From the NCBI GenBank assembly GCA_015068285.1, contig SVKW01000003.1:1-39179 (forward strand): 39,179 nt of DNA, in the 5' to 3' direction. The number at the start of each line of letters is the position of its first letter. Within the stretch, counting starts at the first letter, position 1. A program made the position numbers and the translations under genes. Below the pieces are notes generated by a model. That model ran no database searches. It was not told the DNA's origin and saw nothing but the letters and a program-made list of their open reading frames with translations. The DNA comes from Oscillospiraceae bacterium. GTDB taxonomy: Bacteria; Bacillota; Clostridia; Oscillospirales; Butyricicoccaceae. Shown piece after piece: positions 15,811-16,859 of this stretch.

Positions 15811-16524
15811 TTACGCGTGAATTTCTTTATGCTGCACCCAGAAAGCGCCGCTCGGCTTGATAGCCAGAATGTCGATAGGGCCGCCAACAGTCTTGCTTCT
15901 GTTCTGGAAAGCTATGGTTTTCGCCGTCACATCAACGGCATATTTGGCAAAATCGACCGCATCTTGCAGAGTAAAGAAGGCAAAGCCCATGGAATAATCC
16001 TTCAGGTCGATATAATTTCCGTCACTCGTCTTGATAGCCACAGTATTGAGCAGACGGACAAGAATTTCTGTTTCGCCGTCCCATGTTGCGCTGGCATTTT
16101 CGGTATTTTTGCGTGTGATGCTCTTTGCAGGCACATTCACGCGATGCACGTGAGCCGTCATATCCCCCTTGTCATAGCCTGCAACGATAAACTTTGCATC
16201 TGGCACAGGGTCAAATTTGCCAAAATAATCGATAAGCTTCTGGGAAACCTCCTCGACAGAAGTCTTTTCCTTGACATTTTTGGCGATAAAATCCTCAATA
16301 TAAATGGAAATCGGTCGGTTTTTTATGCTGGAAGCCCCCGAAGTTGAAAGCCCGATGGTGGAATTGCACATAAAAGTCTTATATGTGGTGTCGGTGCTCT
16401 GTATGCCGTAGTTTTTCAGCGCACCCTTGCCGTTTGGATTTGGCTCATAAGTTGTATATGTAATACGGCTGTCGCTGGCCATAACAATTCCTTCGTGGGT
16501 GTAAACTGTGATAATAAATGACAT
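15811..16524 (-). CDS. Proteasome beta-fold Ntn hydrolase-like protein with predicted N-terminal Ser
   Basis: 'MSFIITVYTHEGIVMASDSRIT' aligns without gaps to the proteasome/HslV N-terminal strand and ADSR motif; 'TTYKTFMCNSTIGLSTSG' fits the catalytic Lys region; C-terminal 'SKTVGGPIDILAI'. Confidence 0.7.
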   Translation of the reverse strand: MSFIITVYTHEGIVMASDSRITYTTYEPNPNGKGALKNYGIQSTDTTYKTFMCNSTIGLSTSGASSIKNRPISIYIEDFIAKNVKEKTSVEEVSQKLIDYFGKFDPVPDAKFIVAGYDKGDMTAHVHRVNVPAKSITRKNTENASATWDGETEILVRLLNTVAIKTSDGNYIDLKDYSMGFAFFTLQDAVDFAKYAVDVTAKTIAFQNRSKTVGGPIDILAIKPSGAFWVQHKEIHA

Positions 16525-16859
16525 AATGTTTTCCTCGCGTATGAACTAATATAAATGTAATTATACCATATACAACTATATAATACAGCAATTATTGAGA
16601 AAAGCAATATTGTATACCTATCTTTATAGGTAAAATATTTATAGTTAAAATCAATAAAATACAGGCGTATTTATTGTGAAAACTGAACAAGTAAATAAAT
16701 TGTGTCTTAATATTGGAAAAATTTGCTGCGATGGCAGAGGCTTTATTTGATTTATATATAAAGCATACATTATGGGTTGATTTTTGTACAGTATTGTGTT
16801 ATCTTCGTCAAGGTTTGAAAACCACAACAAAATAATTTAAGAAAGTGAGAAACACACCA

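What the first reader, a model, noticed from the sequence alone, without database searches (positions are those of the whole stretch)
15811..16524. Orphan proteasome-fold protein with a predicted N-terminal Ser nucleophile
The RBS-supported start gives MSFIITVYTHEGIVMASDSRIT. After Met removal, Ser1 lines up without gaps with Thr1 of proteasome beta/HslV, and GIVMASDSR (D17, S18, R19) matches the GVVLAADSR block. 'TTYKTFMCNSTIGLSTSG' fits the region of the catalytic Lys33, with about 15 extra residues before it, and the C-terminal 'SKTVGGPIDILAI' resembles the SGG..V motif. Proteasome-family enzymes normally use Thr. No HslU, Mpa/ARC or other unfoldase is encoded in this window. This could be an HslV/Anbu-like relative with a Ser nucleophile, or an inactive or repurposed form.
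Basis: partly seen in the sequence, partly recalled or inferred. Interest (0 to 1): 0.7.

Follow-up and report, generated by a model that had tools for sequence, protein, structure and literature searches.

The report
Serine-type orphan proteasome-like enzyme
This gene makes a small bacterial relative of the protein-shredding proteasome that uses serine rather than threonine as its predicted cutting residue; it belongs to a scattered, uncharacterised family often carried by phages or found beside phage-defence genes, and its job is unknown.

Summary
The gene (minus strand, 16524..15811, 237 aa) has an RBS, is under strong purifying selection (dN/dS 0.02-0.04) and starts Met-Ser. A profile of 28 homologues matches proteasome beta chains (E 3e-8), with Ser2 on Thr1 without gaps. 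An AlphaFold model (pLDDT 90, pTM 0.85) matches solved proteasome beta chains (Foldseek probability 1.00). Position 1 is Ser (16) or Thr (11) in every complete homologue, the Lys33 equivalent is invariant, and Asp17 and Gly47 equivalents are kept in 27 of 28, so an inactive form is unlikely. It is not HslV or Anbu: it resembles the uncharacterised Firmicute-cluster proteasome homologues of Fuchs et al. 2021, though FC1 membership could not be tested. The genome has no detectable HslU, HslV or proteasome. Added here: a supported, nearly all-Ser clade reaching beyond Firmicutes; no acid at the Asp166 position; and frequent location in prophages or next to RM, DISARM/BREX-like, Lamassu-like or SLFN genes, although the window's own copy and several others sit in ordinary chromosome. 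Best reading: an active, AAA+-independent, Ser1 amide-bond enzyme spread as an accessory gene. A phage-defence role is possible but unproven.

The parts
15811..16524 (-). CDS of a 237-aa proteasome-like Ntn protein, ATG at 16524-16522, stop at 15813-15811
   Evidence: ORF listing; purifying selection; profile match to proteasome beta
16533..16536 (-). ribosome-binding site GAGG, 8 bases before the ATG
   Evidence: sequence read
16519..16521 (-). codon of Ser2, which becomes Ser1 after Met removal; predicted nucleophile
   Evidence: aligned with proteasome Thr1; Ser 16 / Thr 11 of 27 complete homologues
16471..16473 (-). codon of Asp18 (mature Asp17), catalytic-triad position
   Evidence: Asp in 27 of 28, Glu in one
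16378..16380 (-). codon of Lys49 (mature Lys48), equivalent of proteasome Lys33
   Evidence: invariant in 28 of 28; aligned with the Lys33 region
16336..16338 (-). codon of Gly63 (mature Gly62), equivalent of oxyanion-hole Gly47
   Evidence: 27 of 28; same 14-residue spacing from the Lys as in proteasomes
16405..16452 (-). S3-S4 extension (about residues 25-40) that accounts for the extra residues before the Lys
   Evidence: lower-confidence hairpin in the model; length varies among homologues
15970..16047 (-). insertion between helices H3 and H4 (about residues 160-185), typical of the Ser clade
   Evidence: alignment A7, model secondary structure
15871..15891 (-). TVGGPID block (residues 212-218), counterpart of the proteasome SGG block; Gly215 and Asp218 invariant

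Best explanation
The gene encodes a proteasome-beta-fold N-terminal-nucleophile hydrolase. It has no propeptide. Methionine aminopeptidase would remove Met1 (the second residue is Ser) and leave Ser1 as the nucleophile. Ser1, activated by Lys48 and Asp17 with Gly62 in the oxyanion hole, would attack an amide bond, as Thr1 does in the proteasome. It works without a dedicated AAA+ unfoldase, so its substrates are probably small, unfolded or specifically recognised peptides or proteins. It belongs to a scattered accessory family resembling the Firmicute-cluster proteasome homologues, moved around by prophages and other horizontal transfer and kept on the chromosome in some lineages. Shown: gene, homology, fold (predicted), active-site conservation, distribution. 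Inferred: Met removal, catalytic activity, substrate type. Unknown: physiological role and oligomeric state.
For: Profile homology to proteasome beta at E 3.2e-8 with Ser1 on Thr1. 13 of 28 members hit Pfam Proteasome (best 7e-6) and 9 of 28 hit the archaeal proteasome beta model (best 7e-7). AlphaFold model pLDDT 90.2, pTM 0.85. Foldseek hits to solved proteasome beta chains with probability 1.00 and to a phage 'proteasome beta type-2 subunit' at TM 0.75/0.81. Ser/Thr1, Asp17, Lys33 and Gly47 equivalents conserved, although many homologues were fetched with patterns from the C-terminal half. Purifying selection. No HslU, HslV or proteasome found in the genome. A yeast beta5 Thr1-to-Ser mutant loses only 40-45% of its activity, so Ser1 is workable chemistry (PMC4792962).
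Against: The second proton-relay pair of proteasomes (Ser129/Asp166), needed for autolysis and efficient proteolysis (PMC4792962), is not recognisable: no acid at the Asp166 position in 28 sequences and mostly non-Ser at the Ser129 position. TM scores to PDB are only about 0.5-0.62, so the subunit shape differs from proteasomes. No activity data are known to me for any member. The S3-S4 and H3-H4 insertions may prevent ring assembly.
Confidence: 0.72

Rival explanations
1. It is a phage-defence or superinfection-exclusion effector: a Ser/Thr Ntn protease carried by prophages and defence islands that cuts a host or phage protein on infection.
For: Among about 14 independent settings found by genome searches, five are prophage or phage-like (L022, L024, L069, L070, L071) and four neighbour defence genes: between hsdS and hsdM of a type I RM system (L007), near a type II RM set (L009), between DrmD/PglX/PglZ and a LmuB/ABC-3C set (L072), beside SLFN AlbA_2 (L025). 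In viral contigs it sits as an antisense cargo gene between portal and terminase (L027) or beside a phage-defence-candidate DUF4917 gene (L032). A distant 402-aa relative sits at the end of streptococcal satellite phages.
Against: Five settings, including the window with its two congeners, are ordinary chromosome. One order keeps it near secA-hpf-comF in 4 of 4 genomes. No enrichment test against a control was made, and the viral set is biased by construction. PADLOC has no model for it.
Confidence: 0.3
2. It is a connectase-like protein ligase or specific transpeptidase, acting as a monomer or small oligomer rather than a protease.
For: It has an extension between S3 and S4, the site of the connectase signature insertion (PMC8665760), and an H3-H4 insertion, a kind predicted there to hinder double rings; one family member has a weak hit to the connectase N-terminal model (E 0.11).
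Against: The S3-S4 extension is a short hairpin, not the two-helix insertion, and two helices are present at the H1-H2 place that connectase lacks. The weak hit is not significant.
Confidence: 0.12
3. It is a catalytically dead, repurposed proteasome fold that binds a partner.
For: The Ser129/Asp166 pair is lost, and proteasome alpha subunits show that the fold can be kept without activity.
Against: Ser or Thr at position 1, Lys, Asp and Gly are kept in essentially all divergent homologues, including changes between Ser and Thr that keep a hydroxyl.
Confidence: 0.12

Closest known systems
Firmicute-cluster proteasome homologues, above all FC1 (Fuchs, Alva and Lupas 2021, PMC8665760)
   Same: Proteasome-like subunit without propeptide, Ser/Thr1-Asp17-Lys33 triad, mainly Firmicutes, no partner known
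   Different: Membership not testable here (reference sequences not held). The Ser clade also occurs in Coprothermobacterota and Bipolaricaulota MAGs, whereas FC1 is listed as Firmicutes only
20S proteasome beta subunit
   Same: Fold, nucleophile position, Asp17, Lys33 and Gly47 equivalents, SGG-like block
   Different: Ser instead of Thr, no propeptide, 15 more residues before the Lys, H3-H4 insertion, no Asp166 or Ser129 equivalent, no other proteasome subunit found in the genome
HslV
   Same: Bacterial proteasome-beta relative
   Different: No HslU in the genome; not among the best sequence or fold matches; Ser nucleophile
Anbu
   Same: Bacterial proteasome-beta relative without AAA+ partner
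   Different: No C-terminal helix H5 in the model; no transglutaminase/ATP-grasp/Alpha-E operon recognised around it
phrog_5990 (402-aa prophage and satellite-phage protein)
   Same: Homologous C-terminal GGPID block and N-terminal Thr; 18 of 28 members match it
   Different: About 160 residues longer, Thr nucleophile, at the ends of prophages and satellite phages

Membership tests
Proteasome-like family (broad sense) | Significant sequence homology to proteasome beta | tested here: met
   Profile E 3.2e-8; 13 of 28 members hit PF00227. The window protein alone has no Pfam hit
Proteasome-like family (broad sense) | Ntn fold | tested here: met
   AlphaFold model pLDDT 90; Foldseek probability 1.00 to proteasome beta
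Proteasome-like family (broad sense) | Ser/Thr1, Asp17, Lys33, Gly47 conserved | tested here: met
20S proteasome beta | Thr1 nucleophile, with Ser129/Asp166 pair | tested here: not met
   Ser1; no acid at the Asp166 position in 28 sequences
20S proteasome beta | Alpha subunit partner in the genome | tested here: not met
   No PF00227 match in G000-G002; drafts 86-95% complete
HslV | HslU partner | tested here: not met
   Only sub-threshold AAA+ hits
Anbu | C-terminal H5 helix and Anbu operon | tested here: not met
   Chain ends after the last core strand; neighbours differ
FC1 | Clusters with FC1 sequences at P 1e-10 | not testable with these tools
   FC1 sequences (WP_075525441.1 and others) are not in the held collections
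Connectase | Two-helix S3/S4 insertion and no H1-H2 | tested here: not met
   Hairpin only at S3/S4; two helices (72-83, 90-101) present at the H1/H2 place
Active Ntn hydrolase | Ser1-dependent activity after Met removal | not testable with these tools
   needs purified protein

The most novel reading that the evidence does not exclude
The Ser-nucleophile clade, with its Thr-type sisters, is a proteasome-fold protease family that serves as a mobile phage-defence or superinfection-exclusion effector, working without any AAA+ unfoldase.
Probability: 0.25. Interest if true: 0.8.

Novelty: new member of a known kind. Interest (0 to 1): 0.45.

Why it matters
All true proteasomes are said to use Thr strictly (PMC4792962). 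A supported, nearly all-Ser natural clade without propeptide and without the Asp166 relay is a natural test of why proteasomes need Thr. The recurrent prophage and defence-gene neighbourhoods give a contextual lead for proteasome homologues whose discoverers reported no informative genomic context (PMC8665760).

Tried and rejected
Single-sequence Pfam, NCBIfam and PDB searches found nothing; only profiles worked. The first AlphaFold run with 6 rows was poor (pLDDT 61) and was not used. Weak hits of one member to DrmB in PADLOC and of others to SANTA or AhpC-TSA_2 were dismissed as chance. Plasmid searches found no relatives. Among annotated phages only the 402-aa sister family was found. A defence enrichment test was not completed: the scan of 118 neighbours gives family tallies, not counts per protein, and no control set was scanned. 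Whether the gene moved within the genus is undecided: in G002 it sits elsewhere, but the whole region is rearranged. Literature searches found no report of function.

Full report
Observation. The ORF is where stated, on the minus strand (16524..15811), 237 aa, with ATG, a GAGG ribosome-binding site and start MSFIITVYTHEGIVMASDSR. Against the two congeneric genomes dN/dS is 0.016 and 0.042, so this is a maintained protein.

Homology and fold. Alone the protein hits nothing in Pfam, NCBIfam or PDB sequences. Relatives were gathered from genomes and viral contigs and aligned (A7, 28 rows). The profile matches proteasome beta chains at E 3.2e-8, all 60 listed hits being proteasome subunits, with the window's Ser2 on Thr1. 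A second AlphaFold run reached pLDDT 90.2 and pTM 0.85. Foldseek finds solved proteasome beta chains with probability 1.00 but TM only about 0.5-0.62, and a phage protein named proteasome beta type-2 subunit at TM 0.75/0.81. The fold is secure; the subunit is a divergent one.

Active site. Position 1 of the mature protein is Ser in 16 and Thr in 11 of 27 complete homologues, Asp17 is kept in 27 of 28 (one Glu), the Lys33 equivalent (Lys48) in 28 of 28 and the Gly47 equivalent (Gly62) in 27 of 28. The Lys to Gly spacing is 14 as in proteasomes. Many of the viral homologues were fetched by patterns from the C-terminal half, so this N-terminal conservation was not built in for them. The Asp166 position is never acidic and the Ser129 position is mostly not Ser (positions inferred from the GG and G anchors of the alignment). 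In proteasomes that pair serves autolysis and catalysis (PMC4792962); its absence fits a protein without propeptide but leaves the efficiency of proteolysis open. In the tree a supported set of 14 rows (99/96) holds 12 Ser rows, one Thr row on a long branch and one truncated row; the Ser/Thr state needs five changes overall. The Thr1-to-Ser mutant of yeast beta5 is still active, so Ser1 is chemically plausible.

Partners. No HslU above cut-off and no other proteasome-family protein was found in the window's genome or two congeners; the best hslU hits look like ClpX (by length and partial match, not tested further). The genome is an 86% complete draft.

Distribution and setting. None of 58 same-family genomes outside the window's genus carries a match at the single-sequence level. 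In a phylum-wide draw of 398 genomes, 8, the window's own included, had a match. The Ser clade also occurs in MAGs labelled Coprothermobacterota and Bipolaricaulota. Settings fall in three sorts: ordinary chromosome (window genus, L008, L012, L013, and an order of four genomes that all carry it, near secA-hpf-comF); prophage or phage-like regions (L022, L024, L069, L070, L071 and the viral contigs); and next to defence genes (type I RM L007, type II RM L009, DrmD/PglX/PglZ and LmuB/ABC-3C L072, SLFN L025, and in a viral contig the defence-candidate DUF4917 gene of L032). A distant 402-aa family, phrog_5990, sits at the ends of streptococcal satellite phages. These settings suggest an accessory, mobile gene and make a defence role worth testing. 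They do not show it: no control set was scanned, and viral contigs are phage by construction.

Comparison. Fuchs, Alva and Lupas 2021 (PMC8665760) described 22 new proteasome-like families, among them five Firmicute clusters, gave the triad as Thr1/Ser1-Asp17-Lys33, noted the lack of propeptides and of AAA+ partners, and reported no informative genomic context. The window protein fits that description and is best filed as a Firmicute-cluster-like proteasome homologue; FC1 membership could not be tested. It is not HslV or Anbu. What is added here is the nearly all-Ser clade, its reach beyond Firmicutes, the missing Asp166 relay, and the prophage and defence-gene settings.

Verdict. A real, probably active, orphan Ser-type proteasome-fold enzyme of a known but uncharacterised kind. 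Function remains open.

Noticed in passing
L031:2111-2784: A prophage carries two family genes; the one at 2111 is broken by a frameshift relative to its near-copy in L029.
   Followed up: partly
MK448317.1 9274-10476 and other Streptococcus satellite phages: The 402-aa Thr-type relative (phrog_5990) lies at or near the very end of satellite phages and prophages, the usual cargo position.
   Followed up: partly
L019, L066, L067, L068: In one order all four held genomes carry the Ser-type gene, near GNAT, HEAT-repeat, comF, hpf and secA genes.
   Followed up: partly
L010:2-136: Genome G002 has a second, truncated copy at a contig end beside a near-identical metallophosphoesterase, probably a second strain in the MAG.
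   Followed up: partly
window:15693-15760: Intergenic sequence with partial copies elsewhere in the window and in congeneric genomes; looks like a dispersed intergenic repeat.
   Followed up: no
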